Assembly: GCA_031265345.1 (NCBI GenBank)
Contig: JAISCU010000080.1
Span: 1 to 14,939 of the forward strand
DNA: 14,939 nt
Direction: 5' to 3'
Source of the DNA: Bifidobacteriaceae bacterium
GTDB taxonomy: Bacteria > Actinomycetota > Actinomycetes > Actinomycetales > WQXJ01
Below the pieces are notes generated by a model. That model was not told the DNA's origin. It saw only the letters and a list, made by a program, of their open reading frames with translations, and did not search any database. Below, one piece after another: positions 2,886-14,553 of this stretch (within the stretch, counting starts at the first letter, position 1; each line of letters begins with the position of its first letter). The position numbers and the translations under genes are program-made.

Positions 2886-3287
2886 CTATCGCCAATCTTC
2901 GACCACCAATCCGTGGACGCGGGCGAACTCGCTGAGGTTGTTCGTGACCACCGTCATCCCCATGGCCAACGCGTGACCGGCGATCAGGAAGTCGAACGCG
3001 CCGATGGGCGTTCCGCGTCGAGCGAGGTCTGCCCTGATCGCCGCGGCCGCAGCCGCTGCGGGTTCGTCGAACGGCAGCACGGTGACCAGCGAGAGCAACT
3101 CGGTAACGGCCTCACGGTTGGCCTCCGGCCGCGCGGAGCGCTCTACTCCGTAGGCGAGTTCGTGTACCGAGATGGTGGAGACCGCGATGCTCCCCCGTGC
3201 GTCAACGAATCGGGAGCGGGCGGTTTCGGCCCGGCCTCTCAACAGCTCGATCAGGACGCTCGTGTCGAGCAAGTAGCCCGCAGTCAC
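2886..3287 (-). CDS. vapC: VapC-family PIN-domain ribonuclease toxin
   Basis: Complete 133-residue PIN toxin. Acidic residues are in the expected places: Asp8 in GYLLDTSVLIELL, Glu43 in STISVHELAYGVERS, Asp99 in PIGAFDFLIAGHA, and the terminal TNNLSEFARV (115-124), where N/D117 and E120 close the metal site. It is a VapC (FitB-like) Mg-dependent endoribonuclease; the target RNA is unknown. The GTG start at 3287 overlaps the antitoxin stop in a GTGA arrangement, so translation is coupled. A long alanine run sits in the middle helix (residues 77-83). The gene order vapB-vapC-epimerase on one strand suggests the epimerase may be co-transcribed. Confidence 0.92.
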   Translation of the reverse strand: MTAGYLLDTSVLIELLRGRAETARSRFVDARGSIAVSTISVHELAYGVERSARPEANREAVTELLSLVTVLPFDEPAAAAAAAIRADLARRGTPIGAFDFLIAGHALAMGMTVVTNNLSEFARVHGLVVEDWR

Positions 3288-3517
3288 AGCGGTTGGCGTT
3301 CCTGAAGCGGCGGTTGGTCGCGGTCGGCCAGGAAATCCGGGTCCACCCTGCTGCCTTTGTCGAACCAGTCGTCCCAACTCAAATCGGCGGGGATCACCAT
3401 GCGCGCATTGCCCACGATCCGTACCTCGACCTCGCGCACGCTCGAGCCGAACGCCACCGCCTTGGGCAAGCGGATCGCCTGGGTTCGGTTGTTGTAGAAC
3501 ACTTTGGTCGTGGTCAT
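3284..3517 (-). CDS. vapB: VapB/VagC-type antitoxin
   Basis: A 77-residue antitoxin paired with the PIN toxin immediately downstream. The N-terminus TTTKVFYNNRTQAIRLPKAVAF is the hallmark of VapB/VagC antitoxins (AbrB-like fold, NRTQAIRLPK). The middle VREVEVRIVGNARMVIPA completes the DNA-binding barrel, and the tail (SWDDWFDKGSRVDPDFLADR) is the toxin-binding region. I chose the ATG at 3517 because GGAGG lies 6-7 nt upstream and the family motif starts right after it. An inverted repeat 15 bp upstream is the likely autoregulatory operator. The stop overlaps the toxin start by 4 bp. Confidence 0.92.
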   Translation of the reverse strand: MTTTKVFYNNRTQAIRLPKAVAFGSSVREVEVRIVGNARMVIPADLSWDDWFDKGSRVDPDFLADRDQPPLQERQPL

Positions 3518-3531
3518 TTGTCGCCTCCGTC

Positions 3532-3552
3532 GGATATATGGACAGTATATCC
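3532..3552 (-). promoter_or_regulatory. Palindromic operator upstream of the second vapBC operon
   Basis: GGATATA (3532-3538) and TATATCC (3546-3552) form a perfect 7-bp inverted repeat with a 7-bp spacer, the most AT-rich stretch in a GC-rich surrounding. It sits 15 bp before the antitoxin ATG. A candidate promoter on the minus strand (TTGTCC at about 3559-3564, then a CATATA-like -10 about 18 bp on) overlaps it. VapBC complexes normally bind such palindromes to repress their own promoter, which is the inference here. Confidence 0.65.
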
Positions 3553-3567
3553 CAAAACGGACAACGT

Positions 3568-3607
3568 GGCCGATGCCGCCTACTCGGCCGGCCGGGCGGC
3601 ATCGGCC
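3568..3607. repeat. Perfect 13-bp-stem GATGCCGCC hairpin
   Basis: GGCCGATGCCGCC (3568-3580) is perfectly complementary to GGCGGCATCGGCC (3595-3607), with a 14-nt loop. It lies between pckG and the second vapBC operon, both on the minus strand. With the hairpin at 3707 it forms a pair in the same 277-bp gap. It has no T-run on either side, so it is more likely a palindromic repeat than a classic terminator. Confidence 0.7.
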
Positions 3608-3652
3608 CTCTGTTTGGTGGGTTGGGAGCCCGCCGCTTGGGGCCAAAACGAG

Positions 3653-3668
3653 GGCCTGTCCCCTGTTC
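3653..3668 (+). repeat. 16-nt exact repeat, copy 1
   Basis: GGCCTGTCCCCTGTTC recurs exactly at 8505-8520, about 4.8 kb away. At both places the repeat lies close to a GATGCCGCCCAC arm, so the two gaps share a composite repeat rather than an isolated word. Confidence 0.6.
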
Positions 3669-3706
3669 CGGACGGGCCCGGCGGGCGCGGGCACAACCGG
3701 TTAAGC

Positions 3707-3747
3707 GGACGATGCCGCCCACCCAAGTCGGGCAGGCGGCATCGTCC
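3707..3747. repeat. Perfect 13-bp-stem GATGCCGCC hairpin downstream of pckG
   Basis: GGACGATGCCGCC (3707-3719) pairs perfectly with GGCGGCATCGTCC (3735-3747), 15-nt loop. It begins 48 bp past the pckG stop on the minus strand and may help end that transcript, but no T-run follows. Same family as the hairpins at 1719, 3568 and 7851. Confidence 0.7.
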
Positions 3748-3794
3748 ATATTGAAGACGGGTTGGCAGCCCACTTGACGCGGGCGGCCGCGCGG

Positions 3795-5842: not shown

Positions 5843-7633
5843 TTGCTACCGCGCGTCCCGTGCCCGGGTAGTGGCCGCAGTCGAAGGCTTCTATTGGGCC
5901 GCTCCCGGTGCCCGTGTCTGACGGTTCCCGGCACCCGCGTGCCGGTCGCCATCGACGCCGAGGATCAGGCCGCGCAGCGAGCCGAGGCCGAATTGAAGGA
6001 GCGCCACACCGTTGCCCCGCGGCTCTACCTCCCGGCCCTGCGCGGCGCGCTCGGCCATCCGGCCATCACGCTGGCCGTCGCGGTGCTGGTGCTCGAGGTG
6101 ACGGTCGCCTTGATACCGAGCCTCGAGACCAACTTCATGGGCGACATCGGCGGCGCCACGATCAGGGTCAACCAGACTTTCAGCGCCGGGACCTCGCTGA
6201 GCGTCCAGGACGAACAGGCCCAGCGCACCGAACGGGCGATCATGGCTTGCGACTACGTCGAGACGGTCATGACCGAGGTGGGCGTGCCCTCCTCGACCGG
6301 GATCTCGGCCAGCGCCCAACCGATCGCGGAATACTCCTTGACTCTGCGCGACCGGGCGCACGCCAAAGCCGCCCAGAACGAGATCCGCCAGGCGCTCGCG
6401 GACTCGAACGGCCCGCGGGTCATCGAGACGACGGTGGAAAGCGCCGAAGCGGCGTTCCTCGGCACCACGACGGTCGATCTGGTGGTCAGTTCGACCAACC
6501 CCGCCGTTCTGGCCCAGGCCGCCGCGACCGTCGAGCAAGCGGCGCGCCAGACCGCGGGCGCCGTCGATGTGACCAACTCGATGGCCGTGGACCAGCCCCG
6601 CGTCGAGGTCATGATCGACCGTGAGGAGGCGCTGGGCCACGGACTGACCGAATCGGGCGTCTCGGGGCTGTTGCGCGGCGTGATGCTGGCGACCGAGATC
6701 GGTTCGCTGAACACCGGCGAGAACGAGATCCCGGTGGTGGTCTCCCCCGGCGACGTGCCACCCGACGTCGAGACTCTGCGCGACGCGGTCCTCTATTCGA
6801 CGCCTGCGGGGGACGTCAAGCTGAGCGACGTCGCGACGGTCGAAGTGACGGCCGCGCCAGTGACGATCGACCGTTTCAACGGCGAGCGGGCAGCGACGGT
6901 CTCCGCCACGCCGGAGAGCCAGGACCTGGGCGCCTTCGCCGACGCGTTGACCGCCGCCGTGGACGCGCTCGACCTGCCCGCTGGCGTCGAGGTCACCATC
7001 GGCGGGGTGTCGGCCCAGATGACCGAGGCTTTCGACGACCTCGGGACGGCTCTGATCGTGGCGGTCATGATTGTCTACATCATCATGGTGGCGACCTTCG
7101 GCTCGTTGATCCAGCCGTTCATACTGCTCATCTCGATCCCCTTCGCCGCCACCGGCGCTCTGCTGGCCCTGGTGGTGACCGCGACCGCGCTCGGCGTGCC
7201 CGCCTTCATCGGCATGTTGCTGCTGGTCGGGATCGTGGTGGCGAACGCGATAGTGCTGATCGACTTGATCAACCAATACCGCGCCGCTGGCCGCCCCTTG
7301 GCCGAAGCCATCGAAGAGGGCACCCGCAAGCGGCTGCGCCCCATCCTGATGACCGCCGCCGCGACCATCTTCGCTTTGATCCCGATGGCGCTGGGGTTGA
7401 CCGGCGGCGGCGGATCGTTCGTCTCGCAGCCGCTGGCGCTGGTGGTGATCGGCGGGTTGGTCACCTCGACGGCGTTGACCCTGCTGGTGGTGCCGGTCCT
7501 GTACCAGCTGGAGGCGAAGGCGCACGACCGCCGCGAGGCGAGGCGCGACCGGCGCCACGAGTCGCGCCGTCAATCCCGCATCGCCATGCGGGCGGCCCTC
7601 CTGGGCGACCTGGCCGCTCCCGCCGCCGAATAG
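5843..7633 (+). pseudogene. RND efflux permease, C-terminal half only (5'-truncated)
   Basis: Encodes at most 596 residues of an RND-superfamily (HAE/SwrC-like) proton-driven exporter; intact permeases have about 1,000-1,100 residues and 12 TM helices. Present: TM7 (residues 73-92), the second extracytoplasmic porter/docking loop (about 93-398), and TM8-12 (about 401-419, 424-447, 451-476, 499-518, 528-553), with family motifs FGSLIQPFILLISIPFAATGA, GIVVANAIVLIDLINQ, RLRPILMTAAATI and SQPLALVVIGGLVTST. TM1-6 and the first porter loop, which carries the proton-relay aspartates of TM4, are absent. The first in-frame codon after the stop at 5816 is the TTG at 5843; recognisable homology starts near residue 45. 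The C-terminus ends in a basic tail. Likely a deletion remnant; a GTG inside (about 5939) could still express a half-protein. The frame is otherwise undamaged over 1.7 kb, which suggests recent loss or retained use. Confidence 0.75.
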
Positions 7634-7649
7634 CGGACTCCAAAACGCT

Positions 7650-7749
7650 GGGGCCAGGCACCAGCGTCCCGCGCACCAGAACGGCTGCCCAGCCCGCTTC
7701 GGGGCACCGTGATGGCGAAAAGCTGGCTTCGGAAGGCAGGCCTGGCCCC
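7650..7749. repeat. Long inverted repeat enclosing a repeated block
   Basis: GGGGCCAGGC (7650-7659) and GCCTGGCCCC (7740-7749) are exact inverted arms 80 bp apart. A smaller hairpin (ACGCTGG 7645-7651 with CCAGCGT 7661-7667) overlaps the left arm and might terminate the RND transcript, though it lacks a T-run. The interior from 7687 (GCCCAGCCCGCTTCG, then CCGTGATGG) has a diverged copy at 8371. Confidence 0.55.
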
Positions 7750-7777
7750 GGTTGTGCTGCGGCGACGCGCCTGTCGG

Positions 7778-7834
7778 GTGTCCACAAGTGGCTGGAACTC
7801 GGGGCCGTCGCCAGTTGGAGCCGCTTGTGTACAC
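7778..7834. repeat. 57-bp palindromic repeat, copy 1
   Basis: GTGTCCACAAG at the left end and CTTGTGTACAC at the right end are inverted (10 of 11), and the inverse match continues inward with mismatches for about 23 bp. A second element of identical length starts at 7914 and shares GTGTCCACAAGT and CTGGAACTCGGG exactly. Confidence 0.65.
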
Positions 7835-7850
7835 GGACTCAGGAAGCCGC

Positions 7851-7906
7851 CGATGCCGCCGACGGGCTGACCTGCGCGAACGCTGGCGGGCGACCAGGCG
7901 GCATCG
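7851..7906. repeat. GATGCCGCC hairpin nested between the two 57-bp palindromes
   Basis: CGATGCCGCC (7851-7860) pairs with GGCGGCATCG (7897-7906), 10 bp perfect with a 36-nt loop. It is the fourth member of the hairpin family seen at 1719, 3568 and 3707. Confidence 0.6.
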
Positions 7907-7913
7907 GGCAGCG

Positions 7914-7970
7914 GTGTCCACAAGTCCCTGGAACTCGGGCTGGGCGCGAGTTGAAGCTAGTTCTGGACAC
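7914..7970. repeat. 57-bp palindromic repeat, copy 2
   Basis: Begins with GTGTCCACAAG and ends with GTTCTGGACAC; GGTGTCCA and TGGACACC are exact inverted ends if one flanking base each side is included. Interior arms (CTGGAACTCG against CGAGTTGAAG) pair imperfectly. Start-to-start distance from copy 1 is 136 bp. Confidence 0.6.
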
Positions 7971-8018
7971 CCAAAACGCTGCTCGGAGAGCCGAGCGCCC
8001 CAATCGCGGCCTTCGAGC

Positions 8019-8360
8019 GTTCGTGGTCGCCGCGTTCGTGCCACGAACCCCGTCAAGGCGCAATTCACGTCCGGGCCGACTGCGCGGGGGCCTGAAATGC
8101 GGGTCAAACGTGTTCGTGGTCGCCGGGGTCGTGCCACGAACCTCGTCGGGGCGCAATTCACGCCCGAACAGACGGCGCGGGACGGCCGCGGGCGCCGAAA
8201 TGCGGGTCAAACGGGTTCGTGGTCGCCGGAGTCGTGCCACGAACCTCGTCAAGGCGCAATTCACGTCCGGGCCGACTGCAAGGGGACCCGAAATGCAGGC
8301 TGACGGCGTTCGTGGTCGCGGCGCTCGTGCCACGAACCCCATCAAGGCGCAATTCACACC
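8019..8360 (+). repeat. Tandem array of four hairpin-bearing units (about 93 bp period)
   Basis: Units start at 8019, 8112, 8215 and 8308 (spacings 93, 103, 93). Each begins with a 30-nt hairpin: GTTCGTGG, 14-nt loop, CCACGAAC, at 8019-8048, 8112-8141, 8215-8244 and 8308-8337, with both stem arms perfect in all four. Each is followed by a GCGCAATTCAC box, and units 1-3 by GAAATGC and a GGGTCAAAC-like end. Units 1 and 3 share a 33-nt identical run covering the box. The fourth unit stops after the box. Stem arms never vary while loops and tails do, which points to selection on structure or to a palindrome-directed duplication. Confidence 0.85.
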
Positions 8361-8370
8361 GGAGTCGGTC

Positions 8371-8520
8371 GCCCAGCCTGCTTCGCGGCTCCGTGATCGG
8401 AGAAAGTCGGCTTGGCTTTCGGAACAGGGGCCTTCCCGGGTTGTCCCCAAGCGCACGATGCCGCCCACTCGCCGACCCGCGACCATCCGAGCCGCCAGAC
8501 CGGAGGCCTGTCCCCTGTTC
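8371..8520. repeat. Degenerate composite repeat upstream edge of the purA 3' gap
   Basis: Starts with a diverged copy of the block at 7687 (GCCCAGCC, GCTTCG, CCGTGAT). It carries inverted arms GAACAGGGG (8422-8430) and CCCCTGTTC (8512-8520), a lone GATGCCGCCCAC half-hairpin near 8457-8468, and the second copy of GGCCTGTCCCCTGTTC (8505-8520). It looks like a decayed version of the repeats found at 3570-3750. Confidence 0.5.
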
Positions 8521-8560
8521 TGGCCCGGTCAGGACCGGCCGGGGAGTCTACACAGAATCG

Positions 8561-9847
8561 CTATGGGATCAGGGCGTGGCGTTGGACTATGGCGTCGCGG
8601 GCGGGGCCGACCCCGACCACGGAGATGCGCGCGCCGGACATCTCCTCGATGGCCTTGACGTAGGACTGCGCGTTGGGCGGCAGCTGCTTGAAGGAGCGGG
8701 CGCGGGAGATGTCCTCGTCCCAGCCGGGCAGGTACTCGTAGATCGGGCGAGCGTGGTGGATGTCGGATTGGGAGGCGGGCAGGTCGTGATGGACCGAGCC
8801 GGCCACGTCGTAGGCGACGCAGACCGGCACCTTGTCCCAGCCGGTCAGCACGTCGAGCTTGGTCAACACGAAGTCGGTGACGCCGTTGATGCGGGCGGCG
8901 TAGCGGGCCACGGGGGCGTCGTACCACCCGCAGCGGCGGGGGCGTCCGGTGGTGACCCCGTACTCGTGCCCGGCTGCGCGCAAACGCTCCCCGGCGGCAT
9001 CGTCCAACTCTGTCACGAACGGGCCGGAGCCGACCCGGGTGGCGTAGGCCTTGACGACGGCGACCACCCGGTCGATCCGTTTGGGACCCACGCCCGTACC
9101 CGTGCAAGCGCCGCCAGCAGTCGCGTTGGAGCTGGTCACGAACGGATAGGTGCCGTGGTCCACGTCCAGCATGGTGGCCTGGCCGCCCTCGAACAGGACC
9201 GTGTCGCCGCGATCCAGGGCCTCGTTCAACAGCAGGGCGGTGTCCGCGACGATGGGCCGGACGCGGTCGGCGTAGGACTCGAGCTCGTCGACCACCTCGT
9301 CGACCGAGATGGCGCGGCGGTTGTAGACCTTGACCAGCAGATGGTTCTTCTGCATCAACGCGCCCTCGACCTTCTGGCGCAGGATCGAGGAGTCGAACAG
9401 GTCTTGGACGCGCAGGCCGACACGCTGCATCTTGTCCGCGTAGGTGGGGCCGATCCCCCGCCCGGTGGTGCCGATCTGCCGCTTGCCGAGGAACCGTTCG
9501 GTGACCTTGTCCATGGTGCGGTTGTAGCTCGGGATCAGGTGCGCGTTGGAGGAGAGCACCAGCCGGGAGATGTCGATCCCGCGGGATTCGAGCGCCGCCA
9601 GCTCCTGGAAGAGGACCTCCAGGTCCACCACCACCCCGTTGCCGATCACCGGCGTGACCCCCGGCGTGAGGATGCCCGAGGGCAGCAGGTGCAAGGCGTA
9701 GGTCTGCCCTGCGATCACCACCGTGTGCCCGGCGTTGTTGCCGCCGTTGAACTTGACCACGTAATCGACGTCCTGGCCGAGCAGGTCGGTGGCCTTGCCT
9801 TTGCCCTCGTCGCCCCACTGGGCGCCGACAAGCACGATTCCTGGCAT
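8561..9847 (-). CDS. purA: Adenylosuccinate synthetase
   Basis: Cytosolic purine enzyme joining IMP and aspartate with GTP hydrolysis to give adenylosuccinate, the first committed step to AMP. Its 428 residues match the usual length. Signatures: [19 protein letters not shown] at the N-terminus (catalytic Asp13 and the GDEGKGK phosphate loop), [11 protein letters not shown] with the catalytic His, [39 protein letters not shown], and [16 protein letters not shown] near the substrate loop. The ATG at 9847 directly precedes the conserved start and has GAGAGG 6-7 nt upstream. It diverges from nagA across 126 bp. No frameshift or missing residue was seen. Confidence 0.98.
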
Positions 9848-11546: not shown

Positions 11547-11620
<74 letters not shown>

Positions 11621-11628
11621 CTCGCCAA

Positions 11629-11670
11629 GCCCCTGACCTGCGGAAACGTTGGGTCGGGGGCCTTTGTTTT
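11629..11670 (+). terminator. Rho-independent terminator of tRNA-Pro
   Basis: GCCCCTGACC (11629-11638) pairs with GGTCGGGGGC (11652-11661) with one G-T wobble, followed by CTTTGTTTT. It begins 9 nt after the tRNA end. Confidence 0.8.
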
Positions 11671-11685
11671 GGCCCGGATCCGGGG

Positions 11686-11707
11686 TTTGGACCGTATTTG
11701 GACCGTA
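11686..11707. repeat. Two tandem copies of an 11-bp sequence near the att site
   Basis: TTTGGACCGTA occurs twice head to tail (11686-11696, 11697-11707), between the tRNA terminator and the integrase stop. The place fits integrase arm-type or excisionase binding sites, which are often short direct repeats; this is an inference. Confidence 0.5.
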
Positions 11708-11743
11708 TGAGAACGGGCACGGTCGGCATTTGGCGGCGCCTCC

Positions 11744-13018
11744 TCACAACTCCGGGCCGGTCGGGCGGGCTGGTTTGGGGGCCGGGTTCGGGGTTTGGTA
11801 TTCGGCTTGGCGGGCGGCTTCCATGGCGGCGGCGACCTCCCCGAGGCGGGACGGCCAGAGGTGCCCGTAGACGTCGAGGGTCATGGCGGCGGAGGCGTGG
11901 CCGAGCATCTGCTGGACCACTTTGACGTCGGCGCCGGCGGCGATCGCTGCGGAGGCGGCCGTGTGGCGCAATTTGTGGGGGGTCAGCCCGAGGCCGTCGA
12001 GCTCGGCGGCGGCGACGGCTTTGTCCCACACGCGGCGCCGCCAGTTGTGGTCGAAGACGGGGCCGCCGCGCCTCGCGGTGAACACGAACTCGCCGGGGCC
12101 GCGGCCTTGGACGAGTTCGGCGAGCTGGTCGGCGAGGAACCCGGGTAGGGGGACGGTGCGCCGCTCCCAGCTTTTCGGGGGTCCGAGCTTCCGGCCTCCG
12201 TCGCGGCCCTGGGTCCAGGTCTGCGCGACCCTGAGGGTGCGGGCGGCGGTGTCGAGGGCGCCGGTTTTCGCGGCGAGGGCCTCGTTGATGCGCAGCCCGG
12301 TGTACGCGAGCGTGTACACCAGGGCGGCGTCCTGCCGGTCCCCGGTGGCGTTTTGGGCGGCGGCGGCGAGGTCGCGGACCTGGTTGTGGGTGAGGTAGAC
12401 GTGGTCTTCGGGGACGGGCCGGGGGATCGACAGGCCGGTGGCGGGGTTCTTCGCGATCCGGTCGTTCGCCATCGCCCATTTGAAGATCGCGCCGAGGATG
12501 GTGACCATGTGCTCTATCGAGGCGGGCGCGAGCGGGGCGCGCATGGTGCGGGCGGGGTGGTCGCGGGGAGGGTTCGAGCCGCGGACCTTGTACCGGGCGG
12601 GCGCTTTCCCGCGGGTCAGGTCCGCGACCCAGGCGGCCAGGTCGGCGCGGCTGATCGAGTTGACCGGCTTCGGCCCGAACTTCGGGACCATGTACATCCG
12701 CAGCTCCCGCTCGTAGCGGACGTACGTGGACTCCCGGATCCTCAGGTGCCCGGCGAGCCACTCCTCGGCGACCTCCGCGAAGGTGGCCTTGCCAAGCGCG
12801 GGGTCGCGGTACACCGACGCGCGGATGTCGTTGTCGAGCTTCGCCGCGAACTCGTCCGCGTCGGCGCGTTTGCTGAACATGCGGGTCCGCTCTTGGCGGG
12901 CTTTGTCCGGGTCGGAGTCGTCGAACCACCGCACCCGCCAGCGCGCCCCGACCCCGTAACGGCTGGTGCGGGCCTTCTTCCGGTCGTGCCAGCGGTCCTC
13001 GACCCACGCTCTGGCCAT
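11744..13018 (-). CDS. int: Tyrosine recombinase / phage-type integrase
   Basis: Catalyses site-specific integration and excision of the element, probably at the adjacent tRNA-Pro. Its 424 residues show an N-terminal arm-binding region (1-75, with RWRVRWFDDSDPDKARQE), an SAM-like core-binding domain (about 78-190), and the catalytic domain (about 205-400). All catalytic residues are present: Arg243 in YTGLRINEA, Lys282 in PKSWERRTVP, His348 and Arg351 in PHKLRHT, His374 in MLGHAS, and Tyr384 in LDVYGHL. Within the core-binding domain, residues about 137-162 (basic, Pro/Arg-rich) look like an insertion between two helices. The ATG at 13018 has a strong AGGAGGGG ribosome site. The gene ends 124 bp from the tRNA and reads toward it. 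Confidence 0.96.
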   Translation of the reverse strand: MARAWVEDRWHDRKKARTSRYGVGARWRVRWFDDSDPDKARQERTRMFSKRADADEFAAKLDNDIRASVYRDPALGKATFAEVAEEWLAGHLRIRESTYVRYERELRMYMVPKFGPKPVNSISRADLAAWVADLTRGKAPARYKVRGSNPPRDHPARTMRAPLAPASIEHMVTILGAIFKWAMANDRIAKNPATGLSIPRPVPEDHVYLTHNQVRDLAAAAQNATGDRQDAALVYTLAYTGLRINEALAAKTGALDTAARTLRVAQTWTQGRDGGRKLGPPKSWERRTVPLPGFLADQLAELVQGRGPGEFVFTARRGGPVFDHNWRRRVWDKAVAAAELDGLGLTPHKLRHTAASAAIAAGADVKVVQQMLGHASAAMTLDVYGHLWPSRLGEVAAAMEAARQAEYQTPNPAPKPARPTGPEL

Positions 13019-13095
13019 TCGTCCCCTCCTGGTTGGTTGGTTGCACTTGGCTGCCAGGAAGGTGCTTCGGCCTTCCCCGGATGCGAGGAGTTGCG

Positions 13096-13299
13096 ATGGA
13101 AGCGAGCGTGGAGGGGCGGACGATGACGTCGGCGGAGCTGTCGGAGCGGTGGTCGATCCCGGTGTCGACGCTGGCGCACTGGCGGAGCCTGGGCCAAGGG
13201 CCGGCGTATGTGAAGCTGCGCGGCGCGGTCCGCTACCGGCTGCGGGACGTGGAGGCGTTCGAGGACGCCCACCTGGTGCCCGCCGGGGCCTCGGGCTGA
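13096..13299 (+). CDS. xis: Excisionase-like MerR/HTH DNA-binding protein
   Basis: A 67-residue protein with one winged-HTH domain: MTSAELSERWSIPVSTLAHWRSLGQGPAYVKLRG, then VRYRLRDVEAFEDAHL. This is the helix_turn_helix_17 / excisionase pattern (ELAERW-x-VPxSTLxxWR, GPxYxKLG, VRYRxxDVExF). Such proteins bend DNA to steer the integrase toward excision, or repress it. The ATG at 13096 has GAGGAG 6 nt upstream; the ATG at 13123 also has a ribosome-like GGAGGGG, so a 58-residue form is possible. It is divergent from int (77-bp gap), unlike the int-xis tandem order of pSAM2-like elements, so the shared gap may be a regulatory switch. It converges on the DUF4913 gene across a strong terminator. Confidence 0.85.
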   Translation: MEASVEGRTMTSAELSERWSIPVSTLAHWRSLGQGPAYVKLRGAVRYRLRDVEAFEDAHLVPAGASG

Positions 13300-13316
13300 C
13301 CCGGCGGCGGGCAAGG

Positions 13317-13359
13317 CGGCGGGCCCCGCCCCCCTGGTTGGAGGGGGCGGGGCCCGCCG
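13317..13359. terminator. Bidirectional terminator between xis and DUF4913 gene
   Basis: Perfect 17-bp stem: left arm 13317-13333, right arm 13343-13359, 9-nt loop (CTGGTTGGA). TGTTT follows on the plus strand, so it best terminates xis; its position between convergent genes also suits the minus-strand operon. Confidence 0.8.
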
Positions 13360-13378
13360 TGTTTCCCCGGGCGGGGGC

Positions 13379-14068
13379 TTATTGGGCGTGGAGGCGGATG
13401 GCTTCGGCTTGGTCGAGCATCTCTTGGTAGTGGTCTTCCAGGTCGCGGCGGCGCCCGACGTGCCATTCGACGTAGGTCAGGAAGTCGTCGTGCCGGTCGA
13501 GGAGGTTGACGGGCGGCGGCTCGTCCGCCGGGTCCGGGGCGGGCTCGCCGGGCCACAGGGCGAGCTTGTGGGGCCGGTCTCTGGCGATCCCGGTGCCGGC
13601 CCCAGCGACGGCTTCCCGCATCCGCAGCTGCCACTCGTCGAGGTCCCTGATCCACCCGAACGGGGCGGACGCGTGCTGGGCCGGGTCGTACGCGCCGAGC
13701 CAGTGGCACCGCAGGGCGGACAGGTGCTCGCGGAGCTGCGGATGGCGGTGCCAGTACGGGGGGATGACGTTCGGCGGGACCGAGAACAGGCGCCGCAGGT
13801 CCTCCACCCACTCGTTCAACGCCAGCCACTCGTATTCGAGGTCGTCGCCGGACAGGGCCGCCCACACCACCGGGCGCGCCGGCCCGTCCCCGGCCTCGTC
13901 CCGCGGCCACCCGCCCGGCCCGAAGTCCCCGCCCCACGGGTCCGCGCCCGGGCCCGTGTCCGCGCCGGCGTGGTCGGGCGCGGCGGCTTCGGCGTCGGCT
14001 TCGGGCGGCGGCCCTTGGTTGTCGTTTTCGCTGTGGTCCGCGGTCATGGGCTTCTGGCCGCCTTTCAC
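13379..14068 (-). CDS. DUF4913-like protein of mobile elements
   Basis: 229 residues of unknown function. Residues about 1-65 are disordered and rich in Asp, Glu, Gly and Pro. The folded part starts near residue 72 (DDLEYEWLALNEWVEDLRRLF) and continues with VIPPYWHRHPQLREHLSALRCHW, then GWIRDLDEWQLRMREA. The pattern of W/L-W-V, PxxWxxHP, LxALxxHW and a final acidic-aromatic helix fits DUF4913, found in actinobacterial plasmids and integrative elements. A C-terminal helix (HDDFLTYVEWHVGRRRDLEDHYQEM) may be coiled coil. The GTG at 14068 overlaps the SSB stop (ATGTGA, 4 bp or less); the ATG at 14047 is an alternative giving 222 residues. It is last in the methyltransferase-SSB-DUF4913 operon. 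Confidence 0.7.
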   Translation of the reverse strand: MKGGQKPMTADHSENDNQGPPPEADAEAAAPDHAGADTGPGADPWGGDFGPGGWPRDEAGDGPARPVVWAALSGDDLEYEWLALNEWVEDLRRLFSVPPNVIPPYWHRHPQLREHLSALRCHWLGAYDPAQHASAPFGWIRDLDEWQLRMREAVAGAGTGIARDRPHKLALWPGEPAPDPADEPPPVNLLDRHDDFLTYVEWHVGRRRDLEDHYQEMLDQAEAIRLHAQ

Positions 14069-14553
14069 ATTCCCGCCGCCGGCGCGGCGGCGATCCGGTC
14101 CTGGTAGGGGGCGCGCGGGTCGCGGCCTTCCGGGCCGGCCCCGGTCCGCGCCGCCTGGGGGGCGGCGGGCGCGGCGTGCTGGGCGCGCCGCGGGGTCCGG
14201 TCCACCTGGTAGGCGGTCATGGCGGCGTCGTGGCCGATGCGGCGCGCGTTGAACTCCTCCCAGTCGGTCTCGGCGCCGTCCGGGCCGGCGGCCCGGCGGG
14301 TGTGGACGCGGCCCTCCGCGACGAACCGGTCGCCTTTCCTGAACACGGCGGCGGCCTTCTCGGCCTGCCGCCCGAACACGACCAAGTCGTGGTAGGACGG
14401 CTCGCCCTGCGTGAACGAACCGTCCTCGTTCGGGGTGTAGTGCTCCTGCCCGACCCGCATGTACGCGCGCGGCTGGCCGCCGTCCGGGCGGGACAGGACC
14501 GGGTCCGTCACCACGAACCCGCTCATCGACGCCTGCGTCTTGATTGGCCTCAC
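14065..14553 (-). CDS. ssb: Single-stranded DNA-binding protein (element-encoded)
   Basis: Coats single-stranded DNA during replication, transfer or recombination of the element. Its 162 residues contain an OB fold at about 8-118: FVVTDPVLSRPDGGQPRAYMRVGQEHY, SYHDLVVFGRQAEKAAAVFRKGDRFVAEGRVH, then EEFNARRIGHDAAM. LVVFGRQAEKAA and GDRFVAEGRV are the family core. The rest (119-162) is Ala/Pro/Arg-rich, and the protein ends in RIAAAPAAGM without the acidic DDDIPF-type tip that chromosomal SSBs use to recruit partners. The GTG at 14553 overlaps the methyltransferase stop (GTGA) and has GAGGAG about 7 nt upstream; the internal Met10 is a weaker alternative. Confidence 0.9.
   Translation of the reverse strand: MRPIKTQASMSGFVVTDPVLSRPDGGQPRAYMRVGQEHYTPNEDGSFTQGEPSYHDLVVFGRQAEKAAAVFRKGDRFVAEGRVHTRRAAGPDGAETDWEEFNARRIGHDAAMTAYQVDRTPRRAQHAAPAAPQAARTGAGPEGRDPRAPYQDRIAAAPAAGM

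What the first reader, a model, noticed from the sequence alone, without database searches (positions are those of the whole stretch)
8019..8360. Tandem array of four identical-stem hairpins with a conserved GCGCAATTCAC box
Seen: four 30-nt hairpins with invariant 8-bp arms (GTTCGTGG/CCACGAAC) at spacings 93, 103 and 93, each followed by GCGCAATTCAC. Loops and tails vary but the arms do not, so structure seems conserved. It lies in a 0.9-kb gap between a broken pump gene and purA. It could be a structured RNA array, a multimeric protein-binding site, or a palindromic mobile repeat expanding locally. No known family name comes to mind.
Basis: partly seen in the sequence, partly recalled or inferred. 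Interest (0 to 1): 0.7.

Follow-up and report, generated by a model that had tools for sequence, protein, structure and literature searches.

The report
Phased palindrome array between two genes
Four near-identical palindromic DNA sites lie in a row between two genes of an uncultured actinobacterium and appear to belong to a scattered family whose copies usually sit exactly 93 bases apart, which suggests docking sites for an unknown DNA-binding protein.

Summary
In detail: four copies of GTTCGTGG-N14-CCACGAAC at 8019, 8112, 8215 and 8308, each followed by GCGCAATTCAC. The unit is larger than reported: an imperfect dyad of about 66-75 bp with outer boxes some 10 bp beyond the inner arms. No genome is held for the window. 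The exact array was not found in 18 family genomes, but diverged relatives are dispersed in 4 of 18, at least 58 units at 23 loci in G316. There 33 of 35 neighbouring dyads start exactly 93 bp apart, like two of the window's three intervals (the third is 103). Spacers are near random between loci, and some near-identical neighbours have unrelated 21-bp spacers. Within G316 stem positions vary independently, which disfavours an RNA stem; between genomes the arms change together. Best reading: helically phased, dyad-symmetric protein-binding sites of a new dispersed repeat family. Kinship with the window array rests on architecture and an in-register shuffle test (0 of 200); profile models and BLAST were weak. 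Protein and function are not identified.

The parts
7997..8360 (.). Whole array: four ~75-bp dyad units (inner hairpin + outer boxes)
7997..8071 (+). Unit 1; inner dyad 8019-8048; upstream outer box degenerate (CAATCGCG), downstream box GCGCAATTCAC 8058-8068
8090..8164 (+). Unit 2; outer box GAAATGCG 8094-8101, inner dyad 8112-8141, box GCGCAATTCAC 8151-8161
8193..8267 (+). Unit 3; outer box GAAATGCG 8197-8204, inner dyad 8215-8244, box GCGCAATTCAC 8254-8264; the interval from unit 2 is 103 (spacer 10 bp longer)
8286..8360 (+). Unit 4; outer box GAAATGCA 8290-8297, inner dyad 8308-8337, box GCGCAATTCAC 8347-8357
8561..9847 (-). purA (adenylosuccinate synthetase); its 3' end faces the array
   Evidence: PF00709 E 6.5e-178
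5843..7633 (+). RND efflux pump ORF, C-terminal half only; its 3' end faces the array

Best explanation
The array is four tandem, dyad-symmetric DNA sites on a helical register, one locus of a dispersed intergenic repeat family of an uncultured Actinomycetales lineage. Each unit has an inner inverted repeat around a variable centre and an outer pair of short boxes about one DNA turn (10 bp) further out. Inferred: a homodimeric or higher-order DNA-binding protein grips the four boxes, and neighbouring complexes contact each other, which is why dyads keep a 93-bp step (about 9 turns; the window's exception is +10 bp, about one more turn) while the DNA between them drifts. Half-sites change together between genomes because both halves follow one changing protein specificity. 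Shown here: architecture, dispersal in relatives, fixed spacing, stronger conservation of boxes than of linkers and spacers, no gene-orientation bias. Inferred: the protein, cooperativity, and a chromosome-organising rather than gene-specific role.
For: Relatives: the arm pattern TTCGTGATC..GATCACGA gives 27 matches (one site counted on both strands), all in 1 of 18 family genomes (G316), reversed-pattern control 0. Model R2 matches 7 of 18 at E <= 1, strongly (best E 1.5e-7 or lower) in G316, G423, G263 and G355; model R3 matches the same 4 of 297 order genomes at 1e-4. Spacing in G316: 33 of 35 intervals are 93, one 92, one 94, at 16 loci; in G423 7 of 7 are 93 (coordinates). Between-locus identity of 33 G316 93-mers: inner arms 0.93, outer boxes 0.79, linkers 0.60, spacers 0.38 against 0.31 by composition. 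Some near-identical dyads have unrelated spacers of equal length. Stem positions 11/62 in 58 G316 units: AC 25, GC 15, AT 9, GT 9; linkers do not pair. Context: convergent 7, divergent 6, codirectional 12 of 25 resolved loci, 7 of 32 unresolved, against 19/22/39 of 80 background gaps in G316. Flanking genes have no common function: 20 of the 28 ORFs scanned. Window kinship, in-register alignment with a pair-preserving null: to G316 2.00 against -7.53 +- 1.17 (0 of 200), to G423 0 of 200, G263 1 of 200, G355 13 of 200; shared 93-bp step and 10-nt linkers.
Against: No protein identified. Profile models hit the window only weakly: R2 unit 1 E 0.0013, R3 best E 0.059; R1 built from the window does not find the G316 units; BLASTN of the array against 194 fetched loci gives nothing better than E 0.010. 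With free end gaps the similarity to G263 units was not above null (166 of 200 shuffles reach it) and some best alignments were out of register. Across genomes the arms show both-side changes above shuffles (67 cells against 34.4, 0 of 500), which a hairpin would also give. Not all arrays show unrelated spacers: 11 of 33 within-array pairs are at or below 43% identity, the rest higher, and in L289 linkers differ (0.40) while spacers agree (0.95). Only four units on one contig for the window species; the 103-bp interval is a single case. Genomes are fragmented, unnamed assemblies. Box conservation could partly reflect recent copying or gene conversion.
Confidence: 0.55

Rival explanations
1. 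A selfish dispersed palindromic element (REP/BIME- or MITE-like). Dyads are copied around the chromosome, and into fixed positions beside existing copies, by a transposase or by recombination at hairpins; they serve no host function.
For: Dispersed at 23 or more loci in G316; species-specific variants; uneven presence, strong in 4 of 18 genomes; some near-identical dyads with unrelated spacers suggest the dyad, not the 93-bp unit, is copied or homogenised; no 93-bp array by TRF beside purA in the relatives examined; one of 20 flanking ORFs scanned is a DDE transposase (L280).
Against: Outside the dyad no terminal repeats; only the few bases next to it show weak conservation, at most 0.9 bit. 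Y1_Tnp is present in 6 of 18 genomes but does not match repeat presence (absent in G423 and G355; present in G368, G329, G232, G277, which lack strong repeat matches). Selfish copying alone does not explain unequal decay of boxes and linkers.
Confidence: 0.25
2. The hairpins act in RNA, as bidirectional terminators or 3'-end stabilisers between the convergent purA and pump genes.
For: Window array lies between two 3' ends; inner hairpins fold; arms co-vary between genomes.
Against: No orientation bias over loci; no covariation within G316, A.C combinations more common than G.U; fold z-scores -1.15 to -3.26; no T-run terminator-like site in 7600-8600, 1.0 expected in shuffles; outer boxes and a fixed 93-bp step are not needed by a terminator.
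Confidence: 0.1
3. The dyads are target sites of a tyrosine recombinase: about 11-bp arms around a variable 6-bp centre, in tandem, with outer accessory boxes.
For: In G316 the core reads 11-6-11 with invariant arms and variable centre (the dif-like comparison is recalled); the centre is rarely palindromic (2 of 58) and occurs as reverse-complement pairs such as ACCAGC (15) and GCTGGT (9); its end bases are associated over all units, p 7e-5.
Against: That association weakens with one unit per locus (p 0.066); no tyrosine recombinase among the 20 of 28 flanking ORFs scanned; the window has 14 nt between its 8-bp arms.
Confidence: 0.07

Closest known systems
REP / BIME elements (PMC3733652 and PMC2817692, passages read)
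   Same: Palindromic, mostly extragenic, dispersed, sometimes clustered; suggested protein binding and chromosome organisation
   Different: Dyad of about 60-75 bp rather than 20-40; no conserved GTAG or CGTC tag across the family; clusters mostly head-to-tail, not alternating; fixed 93-bp register; no match to Y1 transposase presence; neither paper's main text holds the word Actinobacteria
Dispersed prokaryotic satellites (PMC6749651, abstract and section 10 read)
   Same: Tandem repeats of one family at several intergenic loci; [quoted passage not shown]
   Different: Here only the 72-bp dyad is shared between loci; the 21-bp spacers are not, though their length is
BrickBuilt MITE minisatellite of Porphyromonas gingivalis (PMC4596501, abstract read)
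   Same: Intergenic tandem repeats, 19 copies of the element in one genome
   Different: 23-nt unit without spacers, with leader, tail and small inverted-repeat ends; no such ends found here
MIRU of mycobacteria (recalled; search listing only)
   Same: Intergenic tandem units of similar length at dozens of loci in an actinobacterium
   Different: Recalled as not dyad-symmetric; not compared by sequence

Membership tests
REP (GTAG/CGTC superfamilies) | 20-40 bp palindrome | tested here: not met
   conserved dyad spans columns 7-66 (60 bp) in G316, about 66-75 in the window
REP (GTAG/CGTC superfamilies) | terminal GTAG or CGTC tag | tested here: not met
   GTAG in 8 and CGTC in 4 of 48 relatives' units; in the window GTAG in 0 of 4, CGTC somewhere in 4 of 4; tag position not tested
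REP (GTAG type) | associated RAYT / Y1 transposase | tested here: not met
   PF01797 in 6 of 18 genomes, does not match repeat presence; whether Y1 genes are flanked by dyads was not tested
BIME | alternating orientation of palindromes | tested here: not met
   best-strand calls agree within 14 of 16 multi-unit G316 arrays; mixed in L279 and L289
MITE | terminal inverted repeats at element ends | tested here: not met
   flanks of 23 loci: at most 0.9 bit in the bases next to the dyad, mean about 0.1 bit at 41-100 nt
MITE | target-site duplication | not tested
   -
CRISPR array | short near-identical repeats with unique spacers of constant length | tested here: inconclusive
   spacer length is constant and some spacers are unrelated, but repeats are about 72 bp and diverged and many spacers within an array are similar; no exact viral match for the 2 spacer patterns tried
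CRISPR array | adjacent cas genes | tested here: not met
   no Cas family in 20 of 28 nearest ORFs, 13 of 15 loci; wider neighbourhoods not scanned
Dispersed satellite family | one tandem repeat unit recurring at several loci of a genome | tested here: met
   16 multi-unit loci in G316; not testable for the window species itself
93-bp dyad family of G316/G423/G263/G355 | tandem step of 93 bp | tested here: met
   window 93, 103, 93
93-bp dyad family of G316/G423/G263/G355 | sequence similarity of the dyad beyond its being a palindrome | tested here: met
   in-register score above pair-preserving null: G316 and G423 0 of 200, G263 1 of 200, G355 13 of 200; but profile and BLAST hits weak
Known Rfam RNA family | match above gathering score | tested here: not met
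   only a tRNA at 11547-11620

The most novel reading that the evidence does not exclude
A chromosomal ruler system: 72-bp four-box dyads are placed or maintained at exactly 93-bp steps, independently of the DNA between them, by a nucleoprotein assembly that both binds the sites and sets the distance at which a new copy is made or kept, producing repeat/constant-length-spacer arrays that look CRISPR-like but are not CRISPR.
Probability: 0.15. Interest if true: 0.85.

Novelty: new variant of a known kind. Interest (0 to 1): 0.6.

Why it matters
If right, this lineage has a repeat family in which DNA distance, not only sequence, is preserved between protein sites at many intergenic loci, with arms that change from genome to genome. 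That would make the old question of what dispersed palindromic repeats are for directly testable: find the binding protein, change the spacing by 5 or 10 bp, and see what fails. In some arrays copying of the dyad is separated from copying of its spacer, which ordinary tandem duplication does not explain.

Tried and rejected
Exact-sequence searches. Window array as DNA in 18 family genomes: 0 of 18 at 1e-5, without a positive control. In 200 genomes around G005: 124 of 200 at E <= 0.01, but the matches listed are 20-71 nt long with best E 1.6e-5; I judged them G+C-rich chance without a shuffled control. Whole gap in 6 genomes: 2 of 6 at E <= 0.01, 23 and 34 nt. Hairpin pattern 0 of 6; box pattern 0 of 9; hairpin 0 and box 1 (L076) among the first 80 and again among 100 fetched loci. 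Window hairpin pattern in 18 genomes: 2 of 18, and the reversed control also 2 of 18. Model R1 (window units) in 18 genomes: 9 of 18 at E <= 1, best 0.0072, not followed up.

Plain 93-bp tandem duplication with neutral decay: rejected as the whole story, because some adjacent near-identical dyads have unrelated spacers and boxes decay less than linkers. Coding repeat (93 = 31 codons): no three-base periodicity of variability over 72 columns (1.30, 1.25, 1.25 bits), and the 92, 94 and 103 steps break frame. Integron attC: outer boxes resemble the R-box consensus as I recall it, but box spacing differs; recalled, not tested. Orthologous purA gaps: loci around purA taken from 17 of the 18 family genomes (18 loci, two of them in G355; 3 loci end at or soon after purA) show no 93-bp array by TRF; single dyads there were not excluded. 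Spacers against 0.35 Mb of G316: 6 hits outside arrays with 2 or 3 mismatches of 21, for 34 spacers, judged chance without a control. R2 and R3 scored only part of the first-look candidates in each genome, and R3 over 297 genomes used stricter filters, so copy numbers and absences are bounds. ORF contexts come from a simple GC3 picker that over-extends starts; L379 may be codirectional rather than convergent, and the unresolved L384 probably codirectional; 9 of the 32 loci are from G423, G263 and G355, while the background is from G316. The 58 units and 23 loci (23 loci also) leave out the weakest unit, L386 (59 units at 24 loci). The first similarity test let ends hang free; I repeated it in register, which raised G263 from not similar to 1 of 200.

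Full report
What is there. The window is a 14,939-base contig with 70% G+C; in the protein search its pump protein stands in one contig of that length, and no genome is held for it. Four copies of GTTCGTGG-N14-CCACGAAC lie at 8019, 8112, 8215 and 8308, with GCGCAATTCAC after each; none of 200 shuffles gives such a hairpin. The region is a 93-bp tandem repeat of 3.6 copies. The gap is 927 bp between the 3' ends of an RND pump ORF that holds only the C-terminal half of the family and of purA.

The unit is larger than reported. Upstream GAAATGCG can pair with the CGCAATTC of the downstream box across 10-nt linkers, so the dyad is about 66-75 nt. Inner arms never vary among the four units, so within the window there is no covariation evidence either way. 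From the hairpin start 42 of 50 columns are invariant, but only 6 of the next 19 and 7 of the 22 upstream.

Finding the relatives. purA led to a family of 18 genomes; its five best purA matches are 91-93% identical. The window array itself matches none of the 18 at 1e-5, in a search without a positive control. I sampled 1.14 Mb from relatives and looked for tandem identical hairpins. G316 (purA 93%) gave two arrays of period 93 and a hairpin pair 92 apart. A pattern of their arms gave 27 matches (one site on both strands), all in G316, control 0. Thirty-six units from 15 loci align without gaps. Model R2 from them matches 7 of 18 genomes at E <= 1: strongly G316, G423, G263 and G355, weakly (0.04 to 0.43) G277, G232 and G413. 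A model from 48 units of the four genomes (R3) matches the same four of 297 order genomes at 1e-4, with stricter filters. In the loci fetched, G316 has 59 units at 24 loci; counts below use 58 at 23, leaving out the weakest (L386).

Architecture of the relatives. In G316 the conserved columns are an outer pair GTGCRAC / GTYGCAC, 10-base linkers, and inner arms ATCGTGATCC / GGATCACGAA around a variable six-base centre. Starts of neighbouring units differ by 93 in 33 of 35 cases, 92 and 94 in the others, at 16 loci. In G423 the starts give 7 of 7 intervals of 93; in G355 one pair is 93 apart; the five G263 loci fetched are single units. Between loci of G316, inner arms are 93% identical, outer boxes 79%, linkers 60%, spacers 38% with 31% expected from composition. 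Outside the dyad, at 23 loci, only the nearest bases show weak conservation, at most 0.9 bit. Within arrays, some near-identical dyads are separated by unrelated 21-base spacers: 90-95% linker identity with 19-43% spacer identity in L378, L379 and L395; 11 of 33 within-array pairs are at or below 43%. Gapped alignment rescues 1 of 7 low pairs tested. Other arrays have similar spacers, and L289 shows the opposite, linkers 0.40 and spacers 0.95.

RNA or DNA. Among 36 G316 units the paired fraction and covariation do not exceed shuffles, linkers do not pair, and a variable stem pair shows A-C 25, G-C 15, A-T 9, G-T 9 of 58, with no avoidance of non-pairs. Against this, across the four genomes the arms change on both sides more than shuffles allow (67 cells against 34.4); symmetric half-sites read by a dimer would do the same, so that result does not separate the two. 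Gene context is not biased: convergent 7, divergent 6, codirectional 12 of 25 resolved loci, 7 of 32 unresolved, against 19, 22 and 39 of 80 background gaps in G316. No T-run terminator-like site is found in 7600-8600. Twenty of 28 nearest ORFs at 13 of 15 loci were scanned and belong to unrelated families (citrate synthase, CoaE, SMC, an esterase, TetR, MarR and others; one DDE transposase; two without a family).

Does the window belong. Shared: tandem arrangement, two of three steps of 93, about 10-nt linkers, outer boxes of the ATGCG / CGCA type, variable centre. Sequence: with a null that shuffles pairs as pairs and ends penalised, window units score 2.00 against G316 units, null -7.53 +- 1.17, 0 of 200; G423 0 of 200, G263 1 of 200, G355 13 of 200; the four units singly reach 0, 2, 1 and 0 of 200 against G316. 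With free ends the result was 0, 0, 166 and 9 of 200 for G316, G423, G263 and G355. Profile searches are weaker: R2 hits unit 1 at E 0.0013 as the best place in the window, R3 at 0.059, R1 does not find G316 units, and BLASTN gives nothing better than 0.010. I hold kinship as likely, not proven.

Mechanism. A fixed distance kept while the sequence in between is lost points to protein complexes that touch along the helix; 93 bp is about nine turns and the window's exception adds ten bases (helical pitch recalled; a single case). Which protein, and what for, is not known; even spread over gene contexts suggests a chromosome-level role rather than one regulon. Selfish copying is the main rival; Y1 transposases do not match repeat presence.

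Literature. Searches (titles and abstract starts seen) showed no report of such a family; the library lacks most subscription journals. REP papers (PMC3733652, PMC2817692: passages) describe 20-40 bp tagged palindromes and BIMEs; a survey of satellites (PMC6749651: abstract and section 10) names two organisms with transposed long non-coding satellites; BrickBuilt (PMC4596501: abstract) is a 23-nt minisatellite in a MITE. PMC11707648 (passages) concerns termite Bifidobacteriaceae of low G+C; I saw nothing there on this lineage.

Noticed in passing
window 7777-7834 and 7913-7970: Second palindromic pair in the same gap (GTGTCCACAAG..CTTGTGTACAC type), 78% identical, 136 bp apart; its arm resembles the actinobacterial DnaA box as I recall it.
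   Followed up: partly
window 7674-7755 and 8357-8444: Diverged direct repeat (73%) flanking the array on both sides.
   Followed up: partly
window (15 places) and G316, G232, G263 samples: Octamer CGGCATCG/CGATGCCG is about 6 to 12 times more frequent than base composition predicts (window 15 against 1.2; G316 133 against 21), but near expectation under a maximal-order Markov model.
   Followed up: partly
window 5843-7633: RND pump ORF holds only the C-terminal half of the family; a pump relative also lies near purA in L105, L106, L107, L109 and L111.
   Followed up: partly
window 11547-14553: tRNA gene next to a tyrosine integrase ORF (11744-13018, -) with an SSB-like ORF beyond (14065-14553, -): likely end of a tRNA-integrated element.
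   Followed up: no
window 3555-3771: Imperfect direct repeat (70%) with CGATGCCGCC hairpins at 3571 and 3710, overlapping the start of an ORF with a PIN domain (2886-3773).
   Followed up: no
L266 1-480 (G232): Looks like a CRISPR array: about 36-nt palindromic repeat ending in ATTGAGGC, period about 71.
   Followed up: no
L106 6281-6411, L306 921-1026, L308 11492 (G263): Another dispersed tandem palindrome, AACTAATTCC..GGAATTAGTT, in pairs 55-72 bp apart; in L106 between two convergent pump genes.
   Followed up: no
L115 1884-2149 (G248): 80-bp tandem repeat, 3.3 copies, directly downstream of purA in a more distant relative; it looks unrelated by eye, not tested.
   Followed up: no
G423 contigs C46, C90, C94, C126, C292, C346: Dyad arrays sit close to contig ends, as if the repeats break assembly, so copy number there is probably underestimated.
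   Followed up: no
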